A stretch of 45,260 nt of DNA from Ralstonia pickettii (GTDB taxonomy: Bacteria; Pseudomonadota; Gammaproteobacteria; Burkholderiales; Burkholderiaceae). The position numbers and the translations under genes were made by a program. Below the pieces are notes generated by a model. That model worked only from the letters and a program-made list of their open reading frames with translations. It was not told the DNA's origin and did no database searches. Location of the stretch: positions 1 to 45,260 of the forward strand of contig NZ_MCGB01000102.1 in NCBI RefSeq assembly GCF_001699815.1. Reading direction: 5' to 3'. This document shows positions 5,819 to 19,286 of this stretch, in pieces (position 1 is the first letter of the stretch; the number at the start of each line of letters is the position of its first letter).

Positions 5819-5841
5819 GGGTGTTTGACGGTCAAACACCC
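5819..5841. repeat. 23-bp perfect palindrome directly after the mobC-like stop
   Basis: Arms GGGTGTTTGAC and GTCAAACACCC are separated by one G and abut the stop codon of the mobC-like gene. As RNA it would form a 10-bp stem with a three-base loop. No U-run follows on the minus strand, so it may be a weak terminator, an mRNA-protecting hairpin, or a binding site for a dimeric protein. Confidence 0.75.
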
Positions 5842-6177
5842 CTATTTCTTGCCGGCCACTCGCAGAATCGCCCGACGCGCCTCAAGTAGCACAGGCAGCA
5901 AGGCGTCCTCTGGCGGAGGAAAACCACGCTCAACCATCGAAGCATGGATTGCACGGATCTCGCGGGTGATCGCCGACAGGGCCAGCACGACCTCCGTTTC
6001 GTGATCCACATCAGCTTTCCGACCTAGGGCTGCACGTCGGATGAATTCCGCCACATCCATCTGCCGGCTTCCAGCGCTGTGGCGCACCTTCCGAGCCTCG
6101 TCCTCAGTCCATCGGACAAGCATCTGGACGCTTCGCTTCGCGGCGTCGGGCTTTTTCTGAAAGTAGGCGCGTGACAT
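5842..6177 (-). CDS. mobC: MobC-like ribbon-helix-helix relaxosome accessory protein
   Basis: 111 residues from MSRAYFQKKPDAAKRS (ATG at 6177). The core RSVQMLVRWTEDEARKVRH followed by MDVAEFIRRAALGRK has the strand-helix-helix pattern of MobC/TraJ-type proteins, which bind oriT, help open the DNA and recruit the relaxase. Longer starts at 6213 and near 6186 lack better ribosome sites. It is transcribed away from a block containing a candidate nic site and an 11-bp-phased repeat array (6240-6544), as expected of a gene beside oriT. No relaxase gene is present in the window. Alternative: an RHH transcriptional repressor or partition protein binding the array. Confidence 0.75.
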   Translation of the reverse strand: MSRAYFQKKPDAAKRSVQMLVRWTEDEARKVRHSAGSRQMDVAEFIRRAALGRKADVDHETEVVLALSAITREIRAIHASMVERGFPPPEDALLPVLLEARRAILRVAGKK

Positions 6178-6243
6178 ACAACCCATTATGTTGCGCGAAC
6201 GCTCGCCCAGCAACCAATCCGCTCACCAATCCCTTAATCCGGG

Positions 6244-6345
6244 GTCTCGGGGCGTAGCCCTGAGTGTCTGCGACGGGCGCGTAGCGACCTAGCGGACAAG
6301 GATCAGGCAGCTATCGTGAGATAGCTACCTGGCATCCTGCCCTGT
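6244..6345 (+). other. oriT: Candidate origin of transfer (MOBP-type nic region)
   Basis: On the plus strand a perfect inverted repeat, AGCTATC (6309-6315) and GATAGCT (6320-6326) around GTGA, is followed after seven bases by ATCCTGC at 6334-6340. The nic site of IncP-type (MOBP) and VirD2-type origins is YATCCTG/Y, with the inverted repeat bound by the accessory protein just upstream; here the matched string is CATCCTGC, predicting a nick between 6339 and 6340. A second hairpin (CTCGGGGC/GCCCTGAG) lies near 6244-6265. The mobC-like gene begins 130 bp away and reads outward. Homology by eye only; no relaxase seen. Confidence 0.55.
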
Positions 6346-7408: not shown

Positions 7409-7748
7409 ATCGAGTCATGTTTTTGCGCATGGCCGAACTTGCGGTCGAACGTAGCTCGGAAACGCCGAGATCCCGATAGATAAGTGTTGGACCTCGCTAG
7501 ATGGAACGGGCTTGGTGTTCAGTTGTGGCGGAGAGGCAATCCACGCGGATAGCTTCGCCGGCCGAAATATGGGAGTCGAGCAGTGCGTCGGTTACCGACT
7601 AATGCCGGCAATCAGATCCGGAAAGGGCGTCGCATTTGAGGATGAGGCAGGCTGACGACGCTCGCCGCCAACCTGGCCAGGACTCGACTGATATGTGAGC
7701 TGTTTTGGGAGTCTAGGGCACGGCTGGGCGGGGGATGGTCGCGCCATA

Positions 7749-7763
7749 CTTTTGCTGCAAAAG
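7749..7763. repeat. 15-bp palindrome, copy 2
   Basis: Identical to the site at 7394-7408, in the second unit of the 355-bp tandem repeat. Confidence 0.8.
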
Positions 7764-8146
7764 ATCGCGCCATGTTTCTGCGCATGGCCGAACTTGCGGT
7801 CGAACTTAGCTCGGAGATGCCGAGATCCAGCTTGCTCAGTGCTGAACCTTGCGAGACGGAACAGACTTGGTATTCAGGTATGGCGATGAGGCAATCCACG
7901 CGGATCGCTTAGCCGGCTGAAAAATGGTTCATCTCCGATTTTCGGGGAGCGCCAGTCCGACAGCCGAGTTCGGCCACTCACAGCCGCTCGGCAAGGGACT
8001 ATCGTATGACCCTTGGCAGATAAGCTGACCTCGGGCTCCAGGGGTGGAGGTGGCGGGAAGGCCCCGCAGGGCCGGCGCGGCGTGCTTGGACGTACCACGG
8101 CCACCCGCGCCTCGGACCTAGGAGGCGACTTGTTCGCTGACACGGG

Positions 8147-8935
8147 TCAAGATTCGTCCCGGCAGAAGTCGAGCTTTTGCGCTACCGGAAGGATGCCGTG
8201 CTGCTCCAGCATCCCATAGACTGGCTCGATAGTTAGGACGGCCATGTAGCCGAGCTGCTCGGGCTCCCCGTTCTTACACAGTGCCTGGGTGACAACCCCC
8301 AGCGCTGCAGTGCCGCCATCGGGATTTGCCTCGTCATAGGCGACAAGCGCCGGGCCACCGCTGAAGCCACCGCGCGCTGTCGATGAAACGATGAAATGCG
8401 GATGGGGGGAACAATAGAGATCGGTAAGGGCATTCACCTCGCCGAGACTCGCGACTAGCAGCGGCTTTTTTGTCAACTGCACCGGCGGGTAGCCGAGAAC
8501 GAGGGTCCGGTACAAAACGAGCTCATACTGGCCCATCCAGTCGTCGAGGTGACCGCCAAGCGGAATCGATCGCTTCGGGTAGGGCTCCGCAACGAAGCAC
8601 GCCAGATCGATCTCGGCGTTGGAGTGGAAGAGCGGGCCGCGCGTGATCGTGACGCTACCTTGCGGCTTCCGGTCCCAGTGCTTCGGATCTTCAAGCAGGC
8701 TCAACGCAGTCAGGTCGTCGTCGAAGCCTATCTCGCTGATGGTCCGGCCCTCTACGACATGACGGGCGGTGACGAACACGCCCTCGCCGACATGGAAACA
8801 TGTGCCAATGCCCTGCGTGCCGTGATCGTCCTCGGTGACGACGAAGGCGACGCAGCCCCTGTACGTGTTGAACGCGTCTCTGCCCCAACGCGCCGCCGGA
8901 TCGCGTAGAGATCCGACTTTCCTCTTTGCTTCCAT
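8147..8935 (-). CDS. Trypsin-like serine protease
   Basis: 262 residues from MEAKRKVGSLRDPAARWG (ATG at 8935). The S1/chymotrypsin-fold triad is visible: H59 in VTARHVV, D110 in NAEIDLACF and S192 in GGFSGGPAL. There is no signal peptide or membrane segment, so it should act in the cytoplasm, which is unusual for housekeeping bacterial S1 proteases and typical of island-borne or defence-associated ones. GGAG is about 13 bases from the ATG, rather far. The frame is open to 9154, but the added part is compositionally odd and passes through a G9 run. It stands alone on its strand. Confidence 0.85.
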   Translation of the reverse strand: MEAKRKVGSLRDPAARWGRDAFNTYRGCVAFVVTEDDHGTQGIGTCFHVGEGVFVTARHVVEGRTISEIGFDDDLTALSLLEDPKHWDRKPQGSVTITRGPLFHSNAEIDLACFVAEPYPKRSIPLGGHLDDWMGQYELVLYRTLVLGYPPVQLTKKPLLVASLGEVNALTDLYCSPHPHFIVSSTARGGFSGGPALVAYDEANPDGGTAALGVVTQALCKNGEPEQLGYMAVLTIEPVYGMLEQHGILPVAQKLDFCRDES

Positions 8936-9388
8936 GTTGTCTGTGCGTCTCCTTTGTCGCGCGGCGCAAGCATGTGCCTGCCCCACCGGTACCGCAGCGC
9001 AGCGGACGATCGCAATGCCACACACGAACGTCGGCAACGGGCTCGCTAAGCGACCTTTCGTTTCCCGGAAATCGGCGATGAACCTGAAAAATGGGGGGGG
9101 GATCCGCGCTATGCGAAGCGCGGCTGGCCGGTGCCGATCCGCCTCAACTCGCAACGTAGTGTAGCCGCCCGTTGAGCTGTGGCCAGTAGCCCAGGTACGC
9201 AGCGCGAAGGTGTTTGCGCATCGTGCACGACTGCACGGACGGCACGGCGCAATGGGCGAGTCGCACGAGAGCGGACGCGGTACAGGCGCGTGTGTGCTGG
9301 CCTCGAAACAGTAGACTCGCGCGCTGGCTCGCGGGTCAATCGCCGTATGATCTAATCTTCGGCGTTGCCATAGAGCTTTCGGCTCGGG
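8936..9388. other. Intergenic region between divergent protease and membrane-protein genes
   Basis: About 450 bp with no convincing gene. It should contain the two divergent promoters; none matches consensus well. A run of nine G at 9093-9101 lies about 160 bp upstream of the protease start. Confidence 0.5.
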
Positions 9389-10102
9389 ATGAAGACTAAG
9401 AACTTTTGGCTCAGGACGGGCCCAATAGCACTACTTACCTTGGTTGCCGTCTATGGCACGTTTGCAGGCACCAATGAGCCGGTCGTGGGCTGGCTACGGG
9501 GGACTTTGGCTGAACCATACCTCTACAAGTTGCATAGTGGAAACTCAATCCTGTTCAACATATCGGTCGGTTTCCTCAACAGCGTGGTGTTCTGGATCAT
9601 GGTGGTGGTGTACCCAGAGCGAAAACGCAACAAGGTACTTCGCGAGAATCTTCGACGCCGCTATCAGGATTTCAAGGAAAGCACTGTTCAGACGCTTTTG
9701 CATGCCGCTGGCATTTCATGTAGCACAGCAGAAGTGCGAAACCTGACGGACCACCGAAACTTCAAAGCGTTTTTTGACGCCAACGAGAAGGCGCGCTGGT
9801 ACGACGCGCTCAATGGCCTTCAAGATCAGCGCGAGCGCATAGACGACCTCTTGCTTGAAATGGAAATGCTTGCCGACGAGGTGCGCTACGTGCTCGACAA
9901 GATCAACATTGACGACGAGCACGTGCATGCGTCGTTTAAAGTGCTGTGTGCGCACATCCTCCGCTTGCGCCGTTACAGCACCTATTCATACGATCAGGTG
10001 AAGTACATCGGGCAATTCGTGTGGGGTACGCTCGCTCAATGGAGCTTCGTCGACGGCCAACTGGACGTCGATCCCATGCAAAGGCTCATCGATAGCATCT
10101 AG
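9389..10102 (+). CDS. Two-helix membrane protein with a cytoplasmic helical domain, unknown function
   Basis: 237 residues. Membrane segments at about 10-26 (PIALLTLVAVYGTF) and 53-74 (ILFNISVGFLNSVVFWIMVV) precede a charged juxtamembrane stretch (YPERKRNK) and a roughly 160-residue cytoplasmic domain rich in helices, including LEMEMLADEVRYVLDKINID. The start at 9389 has only a weak ribosome site. No family is recognised. It converges with the PIN-domain gene, leaving a 34-bp gap, and is divergent from the protease. The residue pattern suggests a membrane-anchored sensor or effector, which is only a guess. Confidence 0.7.
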   Translation: MKTKNFWLRTGPIALLTLVAVYGTFAGTNEPVVGWLRGTLAEPYLYKLHSGNSILFNISVGFLNSVVFWIMVVVYPERKRNKVLRENLRRRYQDFKESTVQTLLHAAGISCSTAEVRNLTDHRNFKAFFDANEKARWYDALNGLQDQRERIDDLLLEMEMLADEVRYVLDKINIDDEHVHASFKVLCAHILRLRRYSTYSYDQVKYIGQFVWGTLAQWSFVDGQLDVDPMQRLIDSI

Positions 10103-10136
10103 GGAAAGATCGTCCGACGTGTTCTAAGCCTTCGAC

Positions 10137-11168
10137 CTACGTGTCCAGCATGTCCCACTCGTCTCCGAGAATCCATCGGAGTGCGGACAGCTTGCCGTTT
10201 AGCATTCCCCACTCGAAGTCGCTCCACGGGCCGAGGTTGTCGATGCCCACTTCGTCCTCTGTGCGCTTCGCGGCGGCAAGCGCACGAGCCCAGACACTGT
10301 CGAGAATCTGGTCTTGACGGTAAGGGCTCCTGCTGTAGTGCTCCTCAGGCACCACCCTGGTCTTGCCTGTCTCGATCTCATGGCGAAGTGTCCAGTGGCG
10401 GTTGTACCAGACCTGCCGGAACAGTAGGTGCTCGGCTTCCAGGATCTCGCGCAGGCGCCGAGCCTCCTGCGAGTAGTTGAATTCGGAGTCGTGGTCGCCA
10501 AGCAGTTCCGGGCTGTGATCCTTCAGGAATTCGACCATCGAGATCCAGTAAGACGACCGCGGCCCTTCGAATAGATACGAGAGGTCGGTGTGCGGCTTGC
10601 GGAAGTCGTCGGTCGCATTGCTGAAGTCTTTCGTGTTGTGAGTGATGAACGCGCACGGCGCGTCGTCGGACGCCGTCGATACCACATCGACGTAGATCTC
10701 CACTAGGATGGCGTCCCCGACGCTGTTCTTCGCGCGGTGATATGGAGCCTTCTTCCCTAGCGCTCGCTCGGTGACGCGTTGCTTGACCGCATCGCTGGTC
10801 GTAAGCGCGGGAGCACGGCGCAGAAGCCTGTCGATGCGTTCTATGGTGCCACCTACCGCATCACCGTCAACGCCGATCTGATGGTCGACCTCGTTCAGGC
10901 CCGCCAACAGGTCAGCTTTGCGCCCGTCGTCTCCGAACTGGTTCACGGCCTGCCGGACTAGCCGGAAATGGGAATGCAGACCGCGGCGCGCTTCGTCGAT
11001 AATGCGCGCCTTGTTGCGGTCGAATTCGTCGAGCACCTGCTGCGGCACAATCAGTTCGACCTCGCCGTTTTTCACCAGATCTTCGAGCACGCTGATGACA
11101 GGCTGCTCCCGATAGTCCTTCGCGACGTCGAGCCAAACGCAGGTGTCGACCAAAAGCCGGATTGCCAT
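10137..11168 (-). CDS. PIN-domain protein (DUF4935-like), putative ribonuclease
   Basis: 343 residues. The N-terminal PIN fold starts MAIRLLVDTCVWLDVAKD, with acidic positions D8, E48 (VLDEFDRNK), D152/E157 (VGDAILVEIY) and D181 (THNTKDF), which together fit the metal-binding set of PIN nucleases. The C-terminal 150 residues are of unknown function and contain ILDSVWARALAAAKRTEDE and WSDFEWGMLNGKLSALRW. PIN proteins cleave RNA. Long PIN proteins of this type occur alone and in defence contexts. No antitoxin-like partner adjoins it, unlike VapC systems. Confidence 0.8.
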   Translation of the reverse strand: MAIRLLVDTCVWLDVAKDYREQPVISVLEDLVKNGEVELIVPQQVLDEFDRNKARIIDEARRGLHSHFRLVRQAVNQFGDDGRKADLLAGLNEVDHQIGVDGDAVGGTIERIDRLLRRAPALTTSDAVKQRVTERALGKKAPYHRAKNSVGDAILVEIYVDVVSTASDDAPCAFITHNTKDFSNATDDFRKPHTDLSYLFEGPRSSYWISMVEFLKDHSPELLGDHDSEFNYSQEARRLREILEAEHLLFRQVWYNRHWTLRHEIETGKTRVVPEEHYSRSPYRQDQILDSVWARALAAAKRTEDEVGIDNLGPWSDFEWGMLNGKLSALRWILGDEWDMLDT

Positions 11169-11245
11169 GCCGTTCCTCTTAGTGTGAATCCGAGAATTCT
11201 AAGTGAGGGAGAGCCTCATGCAGGCGCCGCTGGGTTGGAAATCGG

Positions 11246-11273
11246 GCGCTGGCTGGCCTCTCGCGGCCAGCGC
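11246..11273. repeat. Hairpin downstream of trbL
   Basis: Arms GCGCTGGC (11246-11253) and GCCAGCGC (11266-11273) with a 12-base loop, 40 bp beyond the trbL stop and between convergent-to-tandem units. It may end the trb transcript, although no clear U-run follows. Confidence 0.4.
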
Positions 11274-11311
11274 ACACATAGCCGCCCAAATTCGAAGAAA
11301 AATCGAACACA

Positions 11312-13084
11312 TCAGTCGTGGTGGTGGCCGCTGATAGACACGTGCGTGGTGGCCTGTTCCTGGGAAAGATGGCGGTTAGCTTCGCCCAGGCGCTCGCCGA
11401 GCGTCGGCTTCTTCGGCTGGGTCATGTGGTCGACAAGCTTTTCAAGCTTCTCTTCCAGTCTCGATGATCCAGACTCGGGCGGACCGCCAATCGCCGCGTT
11501 GGATGCTGCTCCGGCGGGGGCTTGGCTGGCCGTCTCAGGCAGCTCCGCACCATATCGCCCCGACGCCGCGTTTTTATTGCTCGATGCTGCCCCAGATCGC
11601 AGACCAAGTGATGATGGGCTTGAGCTGACCGGCATCGCTGGAGGTGCTTCAGGCACAGCCTTTGCCTGCTCGGCAGCGCTGCCCTGCAAGCTGGCCCCTG
11701 GCGCGGTCGTCGGCCCATCTGCAGAATTGCCCTGAGAGCCGGCCGGCGTGACAGTTACAGGATCGGTTGCCACAGCGCCAGCACCAGCCTCTTCTCCGAT
11801 TGCGGCACCTTTCTCCGCGCTTGGCGAGCCTAGACTATCGTTGAGGCCTCTTCCTACGCCTGACAAATCAGCCCCGTATCGCCCAGAGGCGACGCTGCTA
11901 CTCATGGATGGACTCGAAGCCGCCCCGCCTTGCTGCCTGCTGGGTGGCTGCGGTGCCGACGCACTACCTCCGGCAGGGGCGCCAGCGGACATGGCCGGCT
12001 TGGGCGTCTGAAACACAGGCGCGTCACCACCACCACTCCCCATCGAGGATGCGTTCGAGACCGAGCCGCGCCCCATCAGCTTGTCCATAAAGCCAGACAT
12101 GGATTGAGGAGCTTTTCCCGCCGCCGAGACAGCGGAGGCCCCACCAGTTGCAGCCAACGCGCCTACGGCGGCCCCTGCGGCAGCGGCTGAAGTCACGTCG
12201 TTTGCGCCTAGAGACGCCGAGCCGGCGGCGAGAGAGCTGGCAATTGAATCACTCTTGAACAACAAAAAGGCCAGCAGCAAGTACGCACCGATGGCCGCCA
12301 CAGGCGGGCCAAGGAGAGCGTCCAATCCATCCGTGATCGCCTGTTCCACCGTCATGGCGCTGAGGCTCGCTGTAAGAGCCCGGCTAACGCTGTCGAACGC
12401 GGTCATGATGACCCCCACCAGGATGATCCGGTACGCAAGCGCCAACAGCGATTTGAACGGTGCAATCCCCTGATCCCGCAGCGTTTTGAGCCCCAAGAAC
12501 GAGAAGCTCAAGGGGCTGAGCGTGGCGATAAGAGCGACTTCGAGCTGGAGCATCAAGATCTTGAGTGCGAAGTACAGGCCTACCACCAGGGTAACAATCA
12601 AGATCCAAATGACGATACTTCCCGCTGTGGCTCCAACGAGGGGAAGCGCCCCAACACCGAGCGCGAGCGCTGCGAGCTTTCCCGCCAATGCAAAAGTGTT
12701 CGTCATGATTGTCGCTGGCGTCGGGATAGTGCCAGCGAGCCCGAACATCTGATCGCCAACCGCCTGGATAAACTGCGGCCCGTTGTCGATGAGGTAGAGA
12801 ACGAAACCGACCCAGGCCACGGCGCCAACCAGCTTCGACACGGCTTTCGAAATGTCAGCCTCATCCAATAGCAGGTTGTAGTTTGTGATGAAAAATTGAA
12901 TGGTGGCGAACGCAGCAAGCCACCGGAGTCCTTGGGTGCTCAGCTTGGCAAACGCTGGCAACATCGCCTGCTTGATGATCTCAAACACACTGTCCGCGCC
13001 CAGGATGGAACTGCTTTGAGCGAAGACGCTTTGAGAAACGACCAGCAAGAGCACCAGAGTCAAAATCCTCGCCTGGTTTCTCAT
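11312..13084 (-). CDS. trbL: TrbL, inner-membrane channel component of a P-type conjugative mating pore
   Basis: 590 residues. A signal peptide or first helix (LTLVLLLVVSQSVFAQ) is followed by at least five membrane segments in residues about 50-280, the TrbL/VirB6 arrangement (for example IVIWILIVTLVVGLYFALKI and IGAYLLLAFLLF). The C-terminal 300 residues are a low-complexity A/G/S/P tail with two copies of ASGRYGA(D/E)L, ending in a charged helix and GHHHD. TrbL is the polytopic protein through which the substrate crosses the inner membrane. Gene order trbJ-trbK-trbL is as in IncP plasmids. No other trb gene lies beside it. It is the last gene of the minus-strand operon. Confidence 0.9.
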   Translation of the reverse strand: MRNQARILTLVLLLVVSQSVFAQSSSILGADSVFEIIKQAMLPAFAKLSTQGLRWLAAFATIQFFITNYNLLLDEADISKAVSKLVGAVAWVGFVLYLIDNGPQFIQAVGDQMFGLAGTIPTPATIMTNTFALAGKLAALALGVGALPLVGATAGSIVIWILIVTLVVGLYFALKILMLQLEVALIATLSPLSFSFLGLKTLRDQGIAPFKSLLALAYRIILVGVIMTAFDSVSRALTASLSAMTVEQAITDGLDALLGPPVAAIGAYLLLAFLLFKSDSIASSLAAGSASLGANDVTSAAAAGAAVGALAATGGASAVSAAGKAPQSMSGFMDKLMGRGSVSNASSMGSGGGDAPVFQTPKPAMSAGAPAGGSASAPQPPSRQQGGAASSPSMSSSVASGRYGADLSGVGRGLNDSLGSPSAEKGAAIGEEAGAGAVATDPVTVTPAGSQGNSADGPTTAPGASLQGSAAEQAKAVPEAPPAMPVSSSPSSLGLRSGAASSNKNAASGRYGAELPETASQAPAGAASNAAIGGPPESGSSRLEEKLEKLVDHMTQPKKPTLGERLGEANRHLSQEQATTHVSISGHHHD

Positions 13085-13086
13085 CG

Positions 13087-13371
13087 TCAGTTCACCTTCT
13101 TGTAGACGTAGTTGTAGTTGGTCGTGAAGCTGTCGCCATCAATAGTTGCCTCAACCGGGTACCCTTTAGGGAACTTGAATTTCAAGGTGTTTCCAGTCAC
13201 GGTGAAATCTGTCTCACCAGCAGACCCCACTAGCTTGACCTTGCCTCCACTAAACACGAATTGGGCGCCGTCCTTACCAACATACGTCCCGGAAACGGAG
13301 GCAGAACCAGACTTCTCTCCACAGCCCGCCAGGGCGGCGATGACGATGAAAATTGCGGCGATCTTGTTCAT
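13087..13371 (-). CDS. trbK: Small lipoprotein in the trbK position (candidate entry-exclusion protein)
   Basis: 94 residues from MNKIAAIFIVIAALAGCGEK (ATG at 13371). The LAGC lipobox places the lipidated cysteine at 17. The mature part is a small beta-rich domain (SGTYVGKDGAQFVFSGGKVK, then strands to KKVN). In IncP plasmids trbK sits between trbJ and trbL and encodes an entry-exclusion lipoprotein that blocks transfer into cells already carrying the plasmid. Position and lipobox support that role; the sequence itself is not clearly TrbK. A longer start at 13413 would hide the signal peptide and is rejected. Confidence 0.65.
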   Translation of the reverse strand: MNKIAAIFIVIAALAGCGEKSGSASVSGTYVGKDGAQFVFSGGKVKLVGSAGETDFTVTGNTLKFKFPKGYPVEATIDGDSFTTNYNYVYKKVN

Positions 13372-13388
13372 AGGTCTAAATCCACTAG

Positions 13389-14132
13389 TCAGTTTTGGAG
13401 AAAGCCCTTCCACTTCGGCGCAGGCGCATACTCCACCGAGGGTATCGGCCTTCCGGAAGGCCGCATAAGCCCCGTGGCGTCATCCAGCCCCTTCTGGTCC
13501 TTCGCATTCTGTGTCGCCATGTAGGTCGCCGCCGCTGTCGTTTGGGTCGCCATCATCTCTTTGAGAGACTGCAATTCTTGGATCTGGCGCACGTTGATCT
13601 GAGAGAGCGTCTGCAGGGCATCGAGATTGCCGTTGGTGGTCTGGCTCCGGTTGTAGAGGTCGGTCAGCGCAGCCTGGCTAGATGCGTAGTTGTCGCGCTG
13701 TGCCCCAACGGCGCGGAGCGCAGACTGAAGCGTGTCCGTATTGGTCTGGTGCCAGGAGGTGAACATCTTGGCGAGATTGCCCGCCGTTGGACTCTTGAAC
13801 GTTCGCGCAAAGTTCTGGTCGATCTGCGCGAGGTTGTAGCCAATGGACTGCCCGCCGTTGTAGATCGACCCAATGGTGTTGATCATCTTGCCGACATCGT
13901 CACCCAGTATCGATGTCGGGTTGGAGATCAAGTTCCGTAGCTCGGCCTCGACCTGCTTGCCCTGAAGCACATACTGCTGCACCTGCTGCTCATAGGCTTG
14001 GATGAGCTGCAGGTTGTTCAGGATTTGCGTGACTTCGGTCGAACCGCCAGTCCCCGCCACGGTGCCGGCCAAGGCCGGCGTGGCAATGGCGGCAGCAAGG
14101 ATGAAGCCTGCGATGCGCGTTTCGAGTTTCAT
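13389..14132 (-). CDS. trbJ: TrbJ, VirB5-type mating pair component
   Basis: 247 residues from MKLETRIAGFILAAAIATPA (ATG at 14132, GAGGA six bases before). A cleavable signal peptide ends at about ALAG. The mature protein is helical and glutamine-rich with coiled-coil potential (ILNNLQLIQAYEQQVQQYV at about 40-58), typical of TrbJ/VirB5 minor pilus proteins of P-type systems. In RP4 TrbJ is needed for mating-pair formation. It lies directly before the trbK-like lipoprotein gene. The upstream extension to 14213 is not supported by a ribosome site. Confidence 0.88.
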   Translation of the reverse strand: MKLETRIAGFILAAAIATPALAGTVAGTGGSTEVTQILNNLQLIQAYEQQVQQYVLQGKQVEAELRNLISNPTSILGDDVGKMINTIGSIYNGGQSIGYNLAQIDQNFARTFKSPTAGNLAKMFTSWHQTNTDTLQSALRAVGAQRDNYASSQAALTDLYNRSQTTNGNLDALQTLSQINVRQIQELQSLKEMMATQTTAAATYMATQNAKDQKGLDDATGLMRPSGRPIPSVEYAPAPKWKGFLQN

Positions 14133-14140
14133 CGTATTCC

Positions 14141-14323
14141 TCACTGGTTCAGTTGACGACGGCGAAACGGCAGGTAAACCAAGCTCGCGACAATGAGAGC
14201 GCCGCAGGGCCAAGGATTGCCCTTGAGGGCCAAGTAGACGGGGATGGCGCCAACGACAAGAACAATCGAGAAGGCCTTGGCCATTTGCGCGTGGCTCAGG
14301 GGTTTCTTGTTTGTGTTTTCCAT
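14141..14323 (-). CDS. Small two-helix membrane protein upstream of trbJ
   Basis: 60 residues, MENTNKKPLSHAQMAKAFSI at the start, with membrane segments at about 18-33 and 38-52 and a basic end (PFRRRQLNQ). Predicted as a helical hairpin with both ends in the cytoplasm. GAGG lies about nine bases before the ATG at 14323. The gene is 8 bp from trbJ and 19 bp after the KfrB-domain gene, so it belongs to the operon. TrbC/TrbD-like small membrane proteins exist in conjugation systems, but the sequence does not allow that assignment. Confidence 0.65.
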   Translation of the reverse strand: MENTNKKPLSHAQMAKAFSIVLVVGAIPVYLALKGNPWPCGALIVASLVYLPFRRRQLNQ

Positions 14324-14342
14324 TACCTAGTTCCTCTTCAGC

Positions 14343-15236
14343 TCAGCGAGAGACGCCCTGTTTCAGGGCCTTGTTGATGGCGTGGCCGCGCCCGTCTTGG
14401 TAGCGGATTTCAGCCGTCTGACCGATGGCGGGGACGTGACCATCCATCTTTTTCGTGTCGTGCCAAATGATCTGCTGGGGGTCACGGCCGGTTTTTTGAC
14501 AAATGAATTGACCATCCACCGCCACGATGGGGCCGACATGATGGCCGTCCGTCGCCGGCATGATTTCATCCCAGCTTTCACGCACGGCTTGCATGGTTTG
14601 GGAGTGTTCTGCGGCCTTGGTCTCGGGTTCCTGCTCCACCGGCTGGGCCTGCTCGGGTAGGCCGCCCTGAGCTGCAAACGCCTTGGCCAGCCGCGCGAGA
14701 TCCAGTTCTGTAGGTTTCCAGCCTTTGGCCTTGGCGAGTTCGATGGATGCCTGGTAGGCATCATGCGATTCGGACGTGAGATCCACTGCATCGCCCCGAT
14801 CCTGAATGACCACCGGGCCGCCGGCGGATGGGCGGTAGGCGCCCTCCTTGTCGCGGGTGAATGCACCGGCCAGCAACGATGCCGGCTCGGCCGGGTTCGC
14901 CTTGAGCAGTTCATCGGTCCGGTATTGCTCCATGGCCACAATGTGCAGGCCGAGCGGCTTGGCCTCGGGAAAAAGGGTGGCCATCAGTTTCTGAATGGAT
15001 TGCGGGTTGCGGATGATGAGGCGCTCCTCCTCGTTGATCACTTCATTGATCCGCTTAGCCAGCTCGATCCCCTGTTTGTTGTGCAGTCCGTTGAGCCAGT
15101 ACGGCGCCATGACGGCCAGCTCGCCCGGTTCCGAAGTCGCCTCCAACTGTGTGATGGCTTGGGGCTGTGCCACGGCATGAGGCTTTTCTTGGGAAGCTTG
15201 CGTGAAACGCGCTTTCATTTGCTCGTCGTTTTCCAT
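14343..15236 (-). CDS. KfrB-domain protein with an LPD7-like segment
   Basis: 297 residues. The middle segment (VVIQDRGDAVDLTSES, then ASIELAKAKGWKPTEL at about 160-175) resembles the LPD7 module that follows relaxase domains. The C-terminus (HVGPIVAVDGQFICQKTG through AEIRYQDGRGHA, residues about 230-285) fits the KfrB domain, also found at the end of IncP-type relaxases and in the plasmid protein KfrB. No relaxase catalytic domain is present, so it is a stand-alone version of a relaxase-type tail. It may act in plasmid-style maintenance or transfer. A 15-bp palindrome lies 18 bp upstream. Confidence 0.7.
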   Translation of the reverse strand: MENDEQMKARFTQASQEKPHAVAQPQAITQLEATSEPGELAVMAPYWLNGLHNKQGIELAKRINEVINEEERLIIRNPQSIQKLMATLFPEAKPLGLHIVAMEQYRTDELLKANPAEPASLLAGAFTRDKEGAYRPSAGGPVVIQDRGDAVDLTSESHDAYQASIELAKAKGWKPTELDLARLAKAFAAQGGLPEQAQPVEQEPETKAAEHSQTMQAVRESWDEIMPATDGHHVGPIVAVDGQFICQKTGRDPQQIIWHDTKKMDGHVPAIGQTAEIRYQDGRGHAINKALKQGVSR

Positions 15237-15254
15237 GCGAGATCCTTAGCTTTT

Positions 15255-15269
15255 CTTTTGCTGCAAAAG
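15255..15269. promoter_or_regulatory. 15-bp palindrome upstream of the KfrB-domain gene, copy 3
   Basis: CTTTTGCTGCAAAAG, identical to the two copies in the 355-bp tandem repeat 7.5 kb away. It lies in the 41-bp gap between two operon genes, ending 18 bp before the KfrB-domain start, and could be an operator for an island-encoded protein. Confidence 0.55.
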
Positions 15270-15277
15270 ATGACGAT

Positions 15278-15478
15278 TCAACTGCTGGCATCCAGTCCAA
15301 ATGGATCTCCGTGCATTTGAATGAATTCTTGCCGTTGCTTCTCGATTTGCCGCATGGAAGCAAGGTCAGTCGTTCTGCCGAGGTCTGTTTGCGCCTGCGA
15401 CAAGATGGCCCTCCGCTGCTCTTCCGGCAGTCGGTAGACCGTTTTTCTTGGCTCTGCAAGTACAATGTGGATAGCCAT
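15278..15478 (-). CDS. Small hypothetical protein of the trb operon
   Basis: 66 residues, beginning MAIHIVLAEPRKTVYRLPEE, with AGGAG about six bases upstream of the ATG at 15478. Predicted helical and charged in the middle (RRAILSQAQTDLGRTTD). No family recognised. It lies between a strong hairpin and the KfrB-domain gene in the minus-strand operon. Confidence 0.6.
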   Translation of the reverse strand: MAIHIVLAEPRKTVYRLPEEQRRAILSQAQTDLGRTTDLASMRQIEKQRQEFIQMHGDPFGLDASS

Positions 15479-15508
15479 GCTGATCTCCTAGTCAGATCGC
15501 TTTGGTTA

Positions 15509-15542
15509 GCGGCGCCTGGTCGTTCCAGCGACCAAGCGCCGC
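15509..15542. terminator. Long GC-rich hairpin inside the minus-strand operon
   Basis: Arms GCGGCGC-C-TGGTCG (15509-15522) and CGACCA-A-GCGCCGC (15529-15542) with a six-base loop and one mismatch. It lies 30 bp after the stop of the 52-residue protein gene. No U-run follows on the minus strand, so it is more likely an attenuator or an RNA-stabilising barrier that sets different expression for the genes on either side. Confidence 0.5.
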
Positions 15543-15570
15543 GCTTTTGGGGCCCGCTGCTATTTTTTCT

Positions 15571-15729
15571 CTAGGCTTTTTCTTTATTTGTTTCGGATTT
15601 GAATTTTCCTGCAGAGCGCCCAGGCTTTTTCTTATTGTCTGTAGCCGGCGGCAGTGTTTTGATTAATTCGATCAAGTACTTTTCGGCCTTCTTGACCTGC
15701 TCAGCGCTGAGCAATTTCCTTTTTGCCAT
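15571..15729 (-). CDS. Small lysine-rich protein
   Basis: 52 residues beginning MAKRKLLSAEQVKKAEKYLI and ending in a lysine-rich tail (KKKPGRSAGKF...NKEKA). AAGGG lies about nine bases before the ATG at 15729. It overlaps the end of the preceding operon gene by 29 bp in another frame. Strongly basic, helix then disordered tail, suggesting nucleic-acid binding. Base composition is lower in GC than the core genes. No family recognised. Confidence 0.5.
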   Translation of the reverse strand: MAKRKLLSAEQVKKAEKYLIELIKTLPPATDNKKKPGRSAGKFKSETNKEKA

Positions 15730-15994
15730 TTTTCTTGCCCTTTACGTTTTTGCCGCGTGCGTAGTATGACCTTAGCGTTGATTCGCTGAGATTTATACCT
15801 ATCTCTGCCATCACATTTTTAATCTGCGACCAAGAGCATCCTTTGTCCCGCAGACATTGAATGGTCTTGATCTGTTCCTCGAAAAATTTCGCTCTAGTTT
15901 TTTCAGGCAGCATCAGGAAAGTTGCCGCCTTCAGAACTTCTTCCGCTACGGCGAAGTCCTCGCCGCTAAGTCTGCGCAATGGTCCTAGGTTCAT
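15701..15994 (-). CDS. Helix-turn-helix DNA-binding protein
   Basis: 97 residues. The part from residue about 47 to 80 (CLRDKGCSWSQIKNVMAEIG followed by SESTLRSYYARG) has the form of a resolvase- or TraK-like HTH: a W-S-x-I turn, then a recognition helix after S-E-S-T-L. A basic tail follows. GGGG is seven bases before the ATG at 15994. Probably binds DNA as a regulator or relaxosome-type accessory factor. It is part of the operon from 17245 to 11312. The region is notably AT-richer than the chromosome. Confidence 0.6.
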   Translation of the reverse strand: MNLGPLRRLSGEDFAVAEEVLKAATFLMLPEKTRAKFFEEQIKTIQCLRDKGCSWSQIKNVMAEIGINLSESTLRSYYARGKNVKGKKNGKKEIAQR

Positions 15995-16073
15995 CGTCTA
16001 TCCCCTTCAAAATGCGCACGGATGCCACATTGCGTTCCCGTGCTTTGCAGACGCCAAGCGCTCTGCCTACGGA

Positions 16074-17027
16074 CTACTCTTGGGAATCGGCGTACTGCAG
16101 GCGCTCGCGTCTCGCCGTGAGTTTTTCTGCGAGACGTTTTGGAAGACGCGCCTTGCATTGACGAAGCTCGTCATCGCTCATCGCAAGTAGCGCACCATCG
16201 ATCTGCGAGCCGAATTCCGCCTCGCGCCTCACCATTGCTTGGCGGTCGGCACGCTCCCTTTGAACAGCCCGGCCATCGACAAGCACAAACGCAGCTGGGT
16301 CCTTTTGAAGATGACTGCACAGTGCCACCGCGCCTTTCAAACGCCCCGCTCTCCGCTTCCCCTCAATCTCATCGAGGACGTCTTGCCTGATCGAATGTGG
16401 GAACAACTCGATGCGCGTGCGCAGCTCCGCAAGCTCCGTCTCGTCCAACTTCGGAAACTCAAGCGAGGCGGCTTCCTGCACCCCGGGTGGGGTAGGAGTA
16501 GTAGTAGAGATAGAGATACCGTTACTTGTACTGTTAGAGGCTCCCCTGTCCTCAGGGTATGGACAGGGTGTCGACACGGTGTTCATAGCCTGTGAGAGCT
16601 CACGCGCGATCGATGCCCGCAGATCGTCCTTCGTCGGCAGTCTGGCCACAAAGTCGGCGATGTACGCCTGTTGCCACTGGCCTACTATTTGGCCAATTTG
16701 ATCGTATGTCTTGGCTCGCAGCGAAGGGCCGACTGCCATTCGTGCCGAGTTGTGGTCCCACCAGATCTTGACCCAGACGGAGCACGAGTTCTCGTCGTAG
16801 TCGATCAGGCTGGCGTCGGAAAGCCGGGCGAGGACCGGAAAGAGCTGCTCGGAAGTCCACCCCATCTCCGCTGCGGCGACATGGGGAACGATCTGGTACA
16901 CGCCGACGATATTGCTGAATGGGGAGGTCAAGAGATAGAGAAGCGTTGCCTTGTCCTCCTGGCTGCGAACCGAAATTTGCACTGAGCGCCAAAAGCCTGC
17001 GTCATCAATTACTCGCTGGCGTCCCAT
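16074..17027 (-). CDS. Replication-organiser-like protein with N-terminal winged helix
   Basis: 317 residues. Residues 1-110 (MGRQRVIDDAGFWRSVQISV..., KATLLYLLTSPFSNIVGVYQ, WTSEQLFPVLARLSDASLI) resemble the N-terminal winged-helix domain of phage replisome organisers and DnaT/DnaD-type loaders. A serine/threonine-rich linker (about 155-180) leads to a helical C-terminus. GAGG is seven bases before the ATG at 17027. It may start limited replication of the excised element or help load the host helicase. It directly follows the small DNA-binding gene at 17030. Assignment rests on domain appearance only. Confidence 0.6.
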   Translation of the reverse strand: MGRQRVIDDAGFWRSVQISVRSQEDKATLLYLLTSPFSNIVGVYQIVPHVAAAEMGWTSEQLFPVLARLSDASLIDYDENSCSVWVKIWWDHNSARMAVGPSLRAKTYDQIGQIVGQWQQAYIADFVARLPTKDDLRASIARELSQAMNTVSTPCPYPEDRGASNSTSNGISISTTTPTPPGVQEAASLEFPKLDETELAELRTRIELFPHSIRQDVLDEIEGKRRAGRLKGAVALCSHLQKDPAAFVLVDGRAVQRERADRQAMVRREAEFGSQIDGALLAMSDDELRQCKARLPKRLAEKLTARRERLQYADSQE

Positions 17028-17029
17028 AC

Positions 17030-17245
17030 TCAGGCCTCGTCAAGAATGCGCGCGAGTTCGGTAGCCTTGAAAAGAATGCGCCGCCCAATCTTCACTTTCG
17101 CCGCGCGGAGCTTGCGGGAGAGCTCCTGGTCTGTGTGTAACGTGACCCGCAACCCTTCAGCACTTCGGTTCAACAACGCAGCGCAATCGGCCAGCGACAG
17201 CAAGACGCCATAGCGACTCACCAACAGCTCTTCCATCTTTGACAT
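17030..17245 (-). CDS. Small winged-helix/HTH protein, excisionase- or AlpA-like
   Basis: 71 residues from MSKMEELLVSRYGVLLSLAD (ATG at 17245, GGAG ten bases upstream). The pattern YGVLLSLADCAALLNRSAEGL then KVKIGRRILFKATELARILDE matches the MerR-like helix-turn-helix of AlpA/Xis proteins: an HTH, then a wing with IGRR and a lysine- or arginine-led end. Such proteins act as recombination directionality factors or activators in islands. A start at 17260 or 17296 would add residues without a ribosome site. First gene of the operon, facing the divergent regulator. Confidence 0.7.
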   Translation of the reverse strand: MSKMEELLVSRYGVLLSLADCAALLNRSAEGLRVTLHTDQELSRKLRAAKVKIGRRILFKATELARILDEA

Positions 17246-17359
17246 AGCCAAGATCTCCATTCGTTCTGACAAGCGTTGACCAATTCGGGCAGCCAATAGC
17301 CGAGGAAGCTTCCGGACGCACTGGTGACAGGGCTACCGTCGCCGGCCATAATTACGCTA

Positions 17360-17402
17360 ACACCACAAATATGGTGTACAAAATTTACACCGTTATAGTG
17401 TA
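17360..17402. promoter_or_regulatory. Cluster of overlapping operators between divergent regulator and operon
   Basis: Half-sites alternate: ACACCA (17360-17365), TGGTGT (17372-17377), TACAC (17386-17390) and GTGTA (17398-17402), with GTGTA also at 17374-17378. They form three overlapping inverted repeats with six- or seven-base centres. Such a layout allows cooperative repression of both promoters. The AT-rich sequence here (AAAATTTACACCG, TTATAGTG) is also the best promoter candidate. The regulator at 17439 is the likely ligand. Confidence 0.7.
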
Positions 17403-17438
17403 CTACGCAAGCTTTCGGATAAGGCCTGGAGAAGAGTT

Positions 17439-18083
17439 GTGACCAAGACCTTGAAGGACATTGAGCTCAGCAACCGGCTTCGCACCTTGATTGAAGGTAC
17501 GTTTCCTACGCGCGGACGATTTGGAGCGCTGGAAAGCGTCAGCGGAATCGGCGCCAACAGGTGGAAAAATTTCTACTACAGGAAGCAGGAAGCCGCACCA
17601 GACATGGTGGATTTTTGGTGTAAAAAATACCCCATGGAGCAAACATGGCTATTGACCGGCGTTGAAGCCCCCAATCAAGCGGAATTTCCGTTCGATGCCC
17701 CCGTTCCTCGCGACTGGGAAGGTCAAACCATGGGCGACCGCTTGAACTGGGTAATCAAGGAATGGGCCTCCCCCTCAGGGGAGCAGCTCTTTGCGTACTT
17801 GGAAAAAAAGTCCAGGGGAAGTATCCCTGCGGCCGAATGGTCCCGTGTCGTTCTGCGCCTGGCCGAGCCAACTTTGGAAATGGCACAACTGGTCTGCCAG
17901 TTCCGGCCTCGCTTCACCGAATGGGTGCTACTTGGCCGCGTAACAGGCGAACCGCCAGTCGATCCGACGGACCAATCGTCGATTGAGAACTGGAAGAAAT
18001 GGAATGACCTGCGGATGGCCAGGCATGTCGAGCTTGCGAATAGGAGCCGAGCCGCAGCTAGGCAGAACCACAGCCAAGAATGA
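17439..18083 (+). CDS. Putative transcriptional regulator of the island
   Basis: 214 residues from GTG at 17439 with GGAGA eight bases upstream. The N-terminal 70 residues (LSNRLRTLIEGTFPTRGRFG, IGANRWKNFYYRKQEAAPDM, DFWCKKYPMEQTWLLTG) look like an Xre/CI-type helix-turn-helix that senses a position in the element. The rest has no recognised domain. It is transcribed divergently from the replication/trb operon, across a set of paired operators, which is typical of element repressors. It overlaps the integrase 3' end by 26 bp on the opposite strand. Confidence 0.65.
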   Translation: MTKTLKDIELSNRLRTLIEGTFPTRGRFGALESVSGIGANRWKNFYYRKQEAAPDMVDFWCKKYPMEQTWLLTGVEAPNQAEFPFDAPVPRDWEGQTMGDRLNWVIKEWASPSGEQLFAYLEKKSRGSIPAAEWSRVVLRLAEPTLEMAQLVCQFRPRFTEWVLLGRVTGEPPVDPTDQSSIENWKKWNDLRMARHVELANRSRAAARQNHSQE

Positions 18084-19113
18084 CTGCGTCAAGCTTCTCC
18101 ACCAAGTCCTCAGCCCGTAGGTGCGTGTAGCGCTTGAGCATCTGCATGGACTTGTGCCCGCTTATGGCGGCTACCTCCTGATCGCTCAGGCCCGCCTCAA
18201 CGAGACGGCTCACGGCTTCATGGCGAAGGTCGTGGAAATGAAGATCGGCCAAGCCCATATCACGAACAATGCTCGCCCACAGCTTCTGGAACACATAGGG
18301 CCGTCGTTTCCCGTCGCGCCCCGGCTCCCCAAAGAACACGAGGTCTGAGTCCAATGGACGAATAGGATTGCCGAGGGCCAGTTGCAAGACATCAGCGGCA
18401 GCACGCGTAAGCGGTACTACTCGCGCGGAGCCATTTTTCGTATCCCGCAAGGTCACAACTCGACGGTTCAGATCGACCTGTGAACGGCGTAGCGTTGCGA
18501 TCTCCGATGAGCGCATACCAGTCTCCACAGCCAAGCTCACGATCCAACCCAGCATCGGATTGCTGTGAGCTGACACAGCCGCGAACAAACGCGCCTGCTC
18601 GTCCAGACTAAGACGACGATCGCGCCCGGCCCCCGGGCTAGGCTTGCGGATGTTGGCAACCGGATTGAACGTCAAGCCGATGCTCCACTCTTGAATCGCC
18701 GTTCGAAACAAATGACCCAGCATCGCGAGTTCAATGCGAACCGTGTTGTTCGACTTGCCCGCCGCCAAGCGTGCATCGCGGTACTTGGCGACCAGGTCTG
18801 CGCTAACGGCCGCCATCGAATACTTCCCGAAGAAGGCCTCCAAGTGTTGAGCCGTAAAGCGCTCGCTGCGCTGAGTGGTCGGCTTCTTCGTGACCGAAAC
18901 CTCCTCCATATAGCGCTTCAACGCGCCAGCGACGGTCAGCTTCTCAGATGGTGCGCGGGACAGATACACACCTCGGACCATCTCATCCTCAGTCCGGCGC
19001 GCCCAATCCTCCGCGTCGCGTTTGGTGCGGAAGGTCTTGGCCGTGGTCGGCCAGCCGAGCTTGCGAATGACCGCCTTCCACGTGCCGGAAGGCGTCTTGA
19101 CGATGGTCGCCAT
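18058..19113 (-). CDS. int: Tyrosine recombinase / phage-type integrase
   Basis: 351 residues from MATIVKTPSGTWKAVIRKLG (ATG at 19113). N-terminal arm-binding domain (about 1-55), SAM-like core-binding domain (60-155), and catalytic domain with R201 (VETGMRSSEI), H294 and R297 (HDLRHEA), H320 (ISGHKS) and Y329 (LKRYTHL). It should integrate and excise the island at the adjacent tRNA-Thr. The frame extends to 19173 but the extra part runs into an inverted repeat and lacks a ribosome site. Complete and probably active. Confidence 0.95.
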   Translation of the reverse strand: MATIVKTPSGTWKAVIRKLGWPTTAKTFRTKRDAEDWARRTEDEMVRGVYLSRAPSEKLTVAGALKRYMEEVSVTKKPTTQRSERFTAQHLEAFFGKYSMAAVSADLVAKYRDARLAAGKSNNTVRIELAMLGHLFRTAIQEWSIGLTFNPVANIRKPSPGAGRDRRLSLDEQARLFAAVSAHSNPMLGWIVSLAVETGMRSSEIATLRRSQVDLNRRVVTLRDTKNGSARVVPLTRAAADVLQLALGNPIRPLDSDLVFFGEPGRDGKRRPYVFQKLWASIVRDMGLADLHFHDLRHEAVSRLVEAGLSDQEVAAISGHKSMQMLKRYTHLRAEDLVEKLDAVILGCGSA

Positions 19114-19170
19114 GTACCTGTTCTGAGAGCTGACTGTACCGAAAATGTACTTTTCAACGCCCAGAAAGCA

Positions 19171-19203
19171 CAAGGGGTCACGTGAAATTCACGTAACCCC
19201 TTG
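19171..19203. repeat. 33-bp near-perfect inverted repeat between tRNA-Thr and integrase
   Basis: Arms CAAGGGGTCACGTGAA and TTCACGTAACCCCTTG around a single A, with one mismatch. On the minus strand it begins 7 bases after the tRNA CCA. It may terminate the sspAB-tRNA transcript, or serve as an arm-type or regulatory site for integrase, since it lies between the attachment core and the integrase start. Confidence 0.75.
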
Positions 19204-19210
19204 ATTTTAT

Positions 19211-19286
<76 letters not shown>

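What the first reader, a model, noticed from the sequence alone, without database searches (positions are those of the whole stretch)
11312..14132. Orphan trbJ-trbK-trbL module in an island without other trb genes in sight
Only the VirB5-like, exclusion-lipoprotein and VirB6-like genes are present, in IncP order, in an operon with a replication-like gene and a KfrB-domain gene. A full conjugative element would have trbB-I beside them. SGI1 carries just traN, traH and traG to alter the mating pore of a helper plasmid. A similar strategy, replacing pore and exclusion components of an IncP-type helper, would be new for the trb family as far as I know.
Basis: partly seen in the sequence, partly recalled or inferred. 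Interest (0 to 1): 0.78.

Follow-up and report, generated by a model that had tools for sequence, protein, structure and literature searches.

The report
Island pirating a conjugative plasmid's machinery
A chromosomal island carries its own versions of three parts of a plasmid's DNA-transfer channel, plus near-copies of that plasmid family's transfer origin and control sites, so it probably travels by hijacking and re-tuning such a plasmid, as known islands do with other plasmids.

Summary
The trio is real: trbL, a small lipoprotein gene and trbJ are intact at 11312-14132, with no other trb gene. The window is a whole contig that cuts the island. I found the other end (C72:75854-88176): a 46-bp att repeat of tRNA-Thr, and an empty site in 11 of 15 congeners. 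The ~31.6 kb seen holds no trbB-I, coupling protein or relaxase that I could detect; the C72 part is mostly phage defence.

The closest JKL genes lie inside complete trb clusters of a little-known Burkholderiales plasmid family, not IncP-1. The island also carries that family's oriT (84-91% identical, covarying stem), a NikA-like relaxosome gene, a parS-like site, and three copies of the family's operator-like palindrome, found nowhere else in the 5.24 Mb genome. Two other loci share solo J-K-L; one of them shares the rest too.

Most likely it is an SGI1-like satellite of this family that swaps TrbJ/K/L into the helper's pore. New here: a candidate natural helper, and joint capture of oriT, operator, centromere-like site and pore parts. 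No transfer was tested.

The parts
11312..13084 (-). trbL (VirB6-like inner-membrane pore subunit), 590 aa
   Evidence: 50-55% identical to TrbL of four full clusters
13087..13371 (-). K: 94-aa lipoprotein in the trbK position (entry-exclusion candidate by position only)
   Evidence: lipobox LAGC; 34-35% identical to the K proteins of four full clusters; no TrbK family match
13389..14132 (-). trbJ (VirB5-like minor pilin), 247 aa
   Evidence: 64-81% identical to TrbJ of four full clusters
14141..14323 (-). 60-aa small ORF between the LPD7-KfrB gene and trbJ
   Evidence: 74.5% identical over 55 aa to the equivalent ORF in L006
14343..15236 (-). LPD7-KfrB protein, short relative of the plasmids' ~700-aa LPD7-KfrB protein
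15255..15269 (.). operator-like palindrome CTTTTGCWGCAAAAG, 18 nt upstream of the LPD7-KfrB gene of the JKL operon
   Evidence: same spacing in L006
7394..7408 (.). second copy of the operator-like palindrome; no start of the genes tested within 400 nt
7749..7763 (.). third copy of the operator-like palindrome; no start of the genes tested within 400 nt
15278..15478 (-). 66-aa ORF of the operon, with matches in L006, L005 and NZ_CP026547
15701..15994 (-). 97-aa HTH-like ORF related to the N-terminus of a plasmid gene near oriT
   Evidence: 48% over 77 aa to pACP4.3, also the Burkholderia and Cupriavidus members
16074..17027 (-). replication-like gene (DnaD-like helicase-loader N-terminus)
   Evidence: phrog_1701 1.4e-16
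17030..17296 (-). HTH_17-like small protein, possible excisionase
   Evidence: weak Pfam match 0.0026, below cut-off
18058..19173 (-). tyrosine integrase
   Evidence: PF00589 1.4e-31
19211..19256 (.). att core in the 3' half of tRNA-Thr (tRNA 19211-19286)
   Evidence: 46 of 46 nt identical to C72:75854-75899; empty sites in congeners
6236..6343 (+). oriT-like element: conserved core, covarying inverted repeat, nic-like CATCCTGCCC (CTGGCATCCTGCCC at 6329-6342)
   Evidence: 90.7%, 84.8% and 84.1% identical to three full-cluster members
5842..6213 (-). mobC: NikA-like relaxosome protein
   Evidence: PF21983 2.3e-10, over cut-off; 73%, 62% and 53% identical to proteins of three full-cluster members
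5821..5839 (.). parS-like palindrome GTGTTTGACGGTCAAACAC
   Evidence: core present 6 times at parAB of NZ_CP026547, 3 times in G254, once in L006
1..266 (-). left contig end: N-terminal part of an IS4/5-type transposase with terminal inverted repeat; a C-terminal part ends contig C72

Best explanation
The island is an integrative mobilizable satellite of a P-type conjugative plasmid family of Burkholderiales (examples NZ_CP026547 and pACP4.3). Shown by sequence: it sits in tRNA-Thr with its own integrase; beyond TrbJ, K and TrbL no T4SS gene, coupling protein or relaxase was found; it carries a near-copy of the family's oriT, its own NikA-like relaxosome protein, the family's operator-like palindrome (one copy 18 nt before the JKL operon's LPD7-KfrB gene) and a parS-like site. 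Inferred: when such a plasmid enters the cell, its global regulator acts on the island's operators; the island excises; the plasmid's relaxase, helped by the island's MobC, nicks the island's oriT; the strand leaves through the plasmid's pore, into which the island's TrbJ, TrbL and K replace the plasmid's own. Because K and TrbL have diverged from the plasmid versions more than TrbJ has, the swap most likely changes entry-exclusion specificity, so the island can enter cells that already hold the plasmid. The parS-like site would let the excised circle borrow, or disturb, the plasmid's ParAB. I think the regulator is a repressor (the operators tested in the plasmids lie 15-184 nt upstream of start codons), but neither its identity nor its sign is shown.
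For: Full clusters with the nearest JKL: 21 of 21 tested genes in 4 members, one of them the source of the queries. Island: only J, K, L, LPD7. TrbE of the helper type was not found in the genomes of the 3 close solo-JKL loci (one is a MAG and contigs under 3 kb are not held). The only PF03432 relaxase of the own genome lies on another contig. oriT: window vs the Cupriavidus plasmid 90.7% over 108 nt (E 9e-38), vs L006 86.5% over 319 nt; 12-pair stem 95% paired, 12 cells with two-sided change, 0 of 500 shuffles as high on these two measures. Operator: exactly 3 sites in 5,244,364 bases, all in the island, 0 in shuffles of the window, 13 in the 180,778-bp plasmid, lying there before trbB, trbJ, trbF, parA and LPD7 among others. 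Genes intact; pN/pS window vs three full-cluster members: TrbJ 0.29-0.37, TrbL 0.39-0.43. At TrbJ identity 81% window-Bur has K 34 and L 54, Bur-G254 K 61 and L 69. The kind is proven for SGI1: replacement of TraN/H/G and exclusion bypass (PMC5389848, abstract), parS capture (PMC10954446, passages).
Against: No transfer, excision or expression data. No helper in this genome, so helper identity is by similarity. The plasmids are themselves untested and typed only 'mobilizable'. One of the 4 full clusters (G254) showed no relaxase, TraG, MobC or oriT in the 129.5 kb examined. The parS-like site is single and its core was found in two of the four. The operator precedes trbJ in three of four; in B. 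aenigmatica none was seen there. Two of the island's three operators lie near no start of the few genes tested. L005 (19 kb read, contig ending 2.1 kb upstream of trbJ) showed no operator, parS-like site, mobC or oriT. K lacks any TrbK family match and the +2 Asp reported for TrbK. pN/pS of TrbL among the solo-JKL loci is higher, 0.56-0.60, and K is 0.57-0.70 against full-cluster members. oriT-like copies occur on six further plasmids, so an oriT copy alone does not name the helper. Two of five stem measures are not clearly above shuffles. Trees do not settle one or several captures of JKL.
Confidence: 0.74

Rival explanations
1. Mobilizable satellite as above, but JKL is a barrier rather than a swap: without helper the operon is on, and K (with excess TrbL/TrbJ) keeps the plasmid family out, like the island's other defence genes.
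For: The C72 part is rich in defence genes (type I RM, Gabija, HTH-IrrE); operator-only control implies expression without helper if the regulator is a repressor; TrbK acts in recipients (PMC8923210, passages).
Against: K is only 34-35% identical to the full clusters' K, so exclusion of those plasmids is doubtful (though PMC8923210 reports one TrbK that excludes plasmids with proteins under 35% identical); cloned trbK alone excludes there, so TrbJ and TrbL would not be needed; oriT and mobC would be of little use if the helper were kept out.
Confidence: 0.15
2. Decaying remnant of a once complete integrated plasmid or ICE of this family.
For: Gene order inside the trio is that of the full clusters; the LPD7-KfrB gene is a shortened relative of the plasmid gene.
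Against: JKL intact, with pN/pS below 0.5 for J and L against three full-cluster members; J-K-L without the rest also in L005, L006 and a distant fourth locus; oriT stem kept by two-sided changes; no match to the other 17 cluster proteins in either contig.
Confidence: 0.07
3. Ordinary chance grouping: generic VirB5/VirB6 genes without link to a specific helper.
For: TrbJ matches 504 plasmid records, 502 of them under 60% identity, mostly rhizobial.
Against: TrbL matches only 2 of 72,556 plasmid records, both members of the family, and the oriT, operator and parS-like matches point to the same family.
Confidence: 0.02

Closest known systems
GIsul2 (PMC5704250 and PMC9376610, passages read)
   Same: Integrative element with TrbJ, TrbK, TrbL and no relaxase or other T4SS genes; pore-swapping proposed
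   Different: Integrates at guaA, proposed helper IncP-1alpha, no relaxosome protein reported; here tRNA-Thr, a NikA-like MobC, a different plasmid family, and oriT, operator and parS-like matches. GIsul2 itself was not fetched for comparison
IncP island of Burkholderia glumae (PMC5704250, passages)
   Same: TrbJ, TrbK, TrbL plus relaxosome proteins
   Different: Has its own MobP relaxase; none was found in the window island. The distant G482 locus (MobC, a protein in the relaxase position, JKL) is closer to this design
SGI1 (PMC5389848 abstract; PMC10954446 and PMC5704250 passages)
   Same: Relaxase-less island with a few pore genes, helper-controlled, with helper-type parS sites
   Different: F-type TraN/TraH/TraG, IncA/C helper, trmE site (abstract in the listing), two parS sites; here P-type TrbJ/K/L and one parS-like site
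MGIs with oriT plus MobI (MGIVchHai6, MGIVmi1; PMC5704250 passages)
   Same: oriT plus one relaxosome accessory protein, relaxase from helper
   Different: No pore subunits; here both strategies are combined
Helper-type plasmids NZ_CP026547 (Cupriavidus metallidurans Ni-2) and NZ_CP021369 (Acidovorax carolinensis pACP4.3)
   Same: JKL, LPD7-KfrB, MobC, oriT and operator are related
   Different: Carry a complete trb cluster, relaxase, coupling protein, rep/par and type IV pilus genes

Membership tests
Relaxase-less mobilizable island with T4SS subunits (SGI1/GIsul2 kind) | Integrated by own integrase at an att site | tested here: met
   Integrase gene, 46-nt att repeat, empty site in 11 of 15 congeners; integrase activity not tested
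Relaxase-less mobilizable island with T4SS subunits (SGI1/GIsul2 kind) | No relaxase, coupling protein or other T4SS genes | tested here: met
   for the plasmid-type genes and PF03432; other relaxase families only through Pfam scans of the main ORFs; the gap between contigs is unseen
Relaxase-less mobilizable island with T4SS subunits (SGI1/GIsul2 kind) | oriT related to the helper's | tested here: met
   84-91% to three of four full-cluster members, covarying stem; nicking not tested
Relaxase-less mobilizable island with T4SS subunits (SGI1/GIsul2 kind) | Controlled by helper regulator | tested here: inconclusive
   Operator-like sites shared with the plasmids and found nowhere else in the genome; regulator not identified
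Relaxase-less mobilizable island with T4SS subunits (SGI1/GIsul2 kind) | Mobilized in trans by the helper | not testable with these tools
   Needs matings
GIsul2 | Integration at the 3' end of guaA | tested here: not met
   tRNA-Thr
GIsul2 | TrbJKL of IncP-1 type | tested here: inconclusive
   TrbL_P 65.4 bits against a cut-off of 128.9; TrbL hits only two plasmids, both of the other family; GIsul2 and IncP-1 proteins were not compared directly
IncP island (B. glumae) | Own MobP relaxase | tested here: not met
SGI1 | TraN, TraH, TraG of F type | not tested
   The pore genes are TrbL/TrbJ by family searches; no dedicated TraN/H/G search was run
TrbK entry-exclusion protein | Small lipoprotein gene between trbJ and trbL | tested here: met
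TrbK entry-exclusion protein | Sequence match to a TrbK family; Asp at +2 | tested here: not met
   No TrbK match; Gly at +2
TrbK entry-exclusion protein | Blocks entry of the cognate plasmid | not testable with these tools
   Needs matings
ICE (self-transmissible) | Complete T4SS, coupling protein and relaxase | tested here: not met

The most novel reading that the evidence does not exclude
A second, independently evolved SGI1-type lifestyle in Burkholderiales: one island captured a plasmid family's oriT with its relaxosome protein, its global operator, a centromere-like site and its J-K-L pore unit, then diversified K and TrbL so that the re-tuned pore bypasses the plasmid's exclusion while the parS-like site stabilises the island or expels the plasmid; satellites of the family carry different K-L types that act as rival exclusion groups.
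Probability: 0.4. Interest if true: 0.76.

Novelty: new variant of a known kind. Interest (0 to 1): 0.6.

Why it matters
Pore-swapping by conjugation satellites is demonstrated for SGI1 and IncC plasmids (PMC5389848, abstract) but, in the passages I read, only proposed for trb-type islands such as GIsul2. This island comes with a candidate natural helper family whose oriT, operator and partition-like site it matches, which makes the trb version directly testable. It also suggests that one package (oriT, regulator site, centromere, pore subunits) evolves repeatedly, and it carries phage-defence genes (Gabija, type I RM), so such satellites may spread defence between bacteria.

Tried and rejected
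Own genome as helper: its TrbE-bearing element on C97 is an unrelated ICE-like cluster with a MobH-like relaxase and SXT-type TraD (23% TrbE), rejected. JKL as IncP-1 type: not supported, though not compared directly. More satellites: TrbJ searches gave 4 of 398 family genomes (E <= 1e-35), 2 of 16 genus genomes and 2 of 399 order genomes (E <= 1e-30) and, with an alignment, 1 of 369 class genomes (E <= 1e-20); each count includes the own genome and the samples overlap. One scan of genome contigs gave 3 loci; viral contigs none. Rows left out: one search printed only one of the searched sets; one search repeats the 21-protein search for all sets. Nic consensus YATCCTG: one text search found only unrelated papers; it stays a recalled motif. 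Structure of K: never run. IS target duplication as proof that the two contigs join: flanks give no clean duplication, so the join is an inference. Promoter scan of 15100-16100: none found, 0.6 expected. The motif was absent, in relaxed exact form, from the 9 loci then held.
Full report
OBSERVATION. The three genes are present, intact and in the stated order at 11312-14132, minus strand: trbL 11312-13084, a 94-aa lipoprotein gene K 13087-13371, trbJ 13389-14132. Family matches are clear but sub-threshold for TrbJ (93.5 bits, cut-off 100.6) and TrbL (65.4 bits, cut-off 128.9). K has a lipobox but matches no TrbK model. The LPD7-KfrB gene upstream is confirmed. The replication-like gene at 16074-17027 resembles DnaD-like helicase loaders in its first ~95 residues.

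THE ISLAND. A 19-nt piece of the tRNA-Thr 3' half occurs only twice in the genome at up to one mismatch: in the window's tRNA and at C72:75859, where no tRNA gene was found. The shared stretch is 46 nt, 19211-19256 of the window and C72:75854-75899. In 11 of 15 other genomes of the genus the flank left of that copy, the 46-nt core and the flank right of the window's tRNA lie on one locus without an island (three of the 11 have a few hundred extra bases). Of the other four, two have the left but not the right flank, one the right but not the left, and one little more than the core. The island is therefore C72:75854-88176 plus C102:1-19256, 31,579 bases seen. Both inner contig ends hold parts of an IS4/5-type transposase and share 20-bp inverted repeats, so one IS probably bridges them; this is inferred. 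The C72 part carries a HigB-like toxin gene, an HTH-IrrE protein, HsdR, HsdS, GajB, GajA and HsdM.

NO OTHER TRANSFER GENES. Of 21 proteins of the trb, pil, par and LPD7 region of plasmid NZ_CP026547, the window matches four (J, K, L, LPD7) and the C72 part none. The plasmids' relaxase and coupling protein find nothing in either part, and the genome's only PF03432 relaxase is on contig C94. Other relaxase families were covered only by Pfam scans of the main ORFs. The genome's only TrbE-like ATPase is 23% identical and belongs to another element with a MobH-like relaxase and SXT-type TraD.

WHERE THE TRIO COMES FROM. Among 72,556 plasmid records TrbL matches two: NZ_CP026547 (Cupriavidus metallidurans) and NZ_CP021369 pACP4.3 (Acidovorax carolinensis). 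TrbJ matches 504 records, but only two at 60% identity or more. These two, a contig of Burkholderia aenigmatica (L004) and a copy on a 4.6-Mb contig of G254 carry the complete cluster: 21 of 21 genes match in each (NZ_CP026547 is the query source, and DUF87 of G254 is distant). The order is trbB-C-D-E, three genes, J-K-L, F-G-I, one gene, parA-parB, DUF87, then LPD7-KfrB, with type IV pilus genes beside trbB. Two further loci carry J, K and L without the rest, K there by position and lipobox: L005 (Ralstonia) and L006 (Paraburkholderia MAG). Helper-type TrbE was not found in either genome (L006 is a MAG and short contigs are not held). A distant fourth locus, G482, has JKL (TrbJ 41% identical to the window's) with its own NikA/MobC-like gene and a 948-aa LPD7 protein read here as the relaxase by position only, since PF03432 did not match it; its genome has two other, 34-35% identical TrbE genes on another contig.

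oriT AND RELAXOSOME. Window 5842-6213 is a NikA-like protein (PF21983 2.3e-10, over cut-off), 73%, 62% and 53% identical to a protein encoded near the relaxase in three of the full-cluster members. Upstream of it, 6236-6343 is 90.7% identical to an intergenic stretch of NZ_CP026547, 84.8% to B. aenigmatica and 84.1% to pACP4.3; window and L006 share 86.5% over 319 nt. All five aligned sequences keep CTGGCATCCTGCCC, which fits the IncP-type nic consensus YATCCTG/Y (recalled, no call), beside a 12-pair stem. Of its cells 95% pair and 12 show two-sided change, 0 of 500 shuffles as high on these and on the covariation score, and the slid versions pair at 12-47%; the number of pairs with two-sided change (41 of 500 as high) and of pair types (420 of 500) do not stand out, and the stem was taken from the same five sequences. 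G254 showed no relaxase, coupling protein, MobC or oriT in the 129.5 kb examined, nor did L005 show MobC or oriT in 19 kb. The element also occurs in six other plasmids (8 records in all).

OPERATOR AND parS-LIKE SITE. CTTTTGCWGCAAAAG occurs three times in the 5,244,364-base genome, all in this island (0 in shuffles of the window). It occurs 13 times in NZ_CP026547, before trbB, trbJ, trbF, parA and LPD7 among others; one 47-kb piece has 6, with 0 in shuffles. It precedes trbJ in three of the four clusters, not in B. aenigmatica. In the window and in L006 one copy lies 18 nt before the LPD7-KfrB gene of the JKL operon; the other two window copies lie near no start of the three genes tested. 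L005 shows none. GTGTTTGACSGTCAAACAC is present once in the window and once in L006, both within 70 nt of mobC; its core is present six times around parAB of NZ_CP026547 and three times in G254. The pACP4.3 and B. aenigmatica stretches read show none.

SELECTION AND DIVERGENCE. pN/pS between the window and three full-cluster members is 0.29-0.37 for TrbJ, 0.39-0.43 for TrbL and 0.57-0.70 for K; among window, L005 and L006 TrbL is 0.56-0.60. At 81% TrbJ identity (window-Bur), K is 34% and TrbL 54%; pairs of full clusters with TrbJ 78-83% have K 59-73% and TrbL 68-78% (one pair against three). The Acidovorax member is itself divergent (TrbJ 64%, K 36-45%, TrbL 57-62% to the others), so part of this is ordinary variety. 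After the lipobox Cys, all four solo-JKL loci have Gly and the four full clusters Asn (three) or Asp (one); Asp at +2 is the reported inner-membrane signal of TrbK (PMC8923210, passages). K may thus sit in another membrane; this is weak. Trees leave open whether the solo loci took JKL once or more.

MECHANISM. Best reading: a satellite of this plasmid family. Shown by sequence: integration site, absence of detectable relaxase and T4SS beyond JKL, oriT and MobC match, operator-like and parS-like matches, intact JKL. Inferred: excision on helper entry, nicking by the helper's relaxase, replacement of TrbJ, TrbL and K in the pore, altered exclusion, and use of the helper's ParAB. In plasmid pKPC_UVA01, trbJ and trbL are essential for transfer and trbK is dispensable for it but excludes (PMC8923210, passages), which fits a unit whose swap changes both pore and exclusion.

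KNOWN OR NEW. The kind is known. The 2017 review (PMC5704250, passages) lists GIsul2 with TrbJ-TrbK-TrbL and no relaxase, and the B. glumae IncP island with relaxase plus TrbJKL, both with the SGI1-like reading. SGI1 has proven pore swapping (PMC5389848, abstract) and parS capture (PMC10954446, passages). In the paper searches made I saw no listed title or abstract start that describes this plasmid family's satellites or an island combining oriT, relaxosome protein, operator, parS-like site and JKL; I read only the papers named, in part, and subscription papers and preprints are not held. Verdict: a new variant of a known kind, with a candidate natural helper.

Noticed in passing
L031 (G482:C1:552000-571900), 7905-17452: A distant solo trbJ-K-trbL (TrbJ 41%) with its own NikA/MobC-like gene and a 948-aa LPD7 protein in the relaxase position; no other helper-type trb genes in the 20 kb read. 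It looks like a second design of the same strategy.
   Followed up: partly
NZ_CP084759.1:19400-19499; NZ_CP054842.1:60535-60639; Polaromonas and Rhodoferax plasmids: oriT-like copies on six other plasmids. Around the two that I read no relaxase is annotated; the Shinella plasmid is typed non-mobilizable and may be an oriT-only hitchhiker, whereas the Comamonas plasmid is typed conjugative with relaxases elsewhere.
   Followed up: partly
window 5076, 5211, 7203, 7339, 7694: Five copies of CGTGAGCNNNNNTGGGRGTCA (0.03 expected at up to 2 mismatches), two of them in the two halves of an 84% identical 300-bp duplication (7213-7512, 7568-7867) that also holds two of the operators.
   Followed up: no
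L010 6244-17838 (C72) and window 613-2115: Defence cargo: type I RM with a Gabija pair (GajA, GajB) lodged between HsdM and HsdS, an HTH-IrrE protein, and a second, 52% identical HsdM on the other contig.
   Followed up: partly
A4, K proteins: Residue after the lipobox Cys is Gly in all four solo-JKL loci and Asn or Asp in all four full clusters, suggesting a different membrane.
   Followed up: no
L011 (G000:C97:15000-34900): A separate ICE-like cluster in the same genome with a MobH-like relaxase, SXT-type TraD and its own distant TrbJ.
   Followed up: no
window 2473-3266: ParE-type toxin gene with a PaaA2-like stability gene, a probable toxin-antitoxin pair inside the island.
   Followed up: no
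window 8147-11168: Trypsin-like protease (8147-9154), a 237-aa unknown protein (9389-10102) and a PIN-domain protein (10137-11168) lie between oriT and the JKL operon; possible uncharacterised defence genes, without a strong PADLOC match.
   Followed up: no
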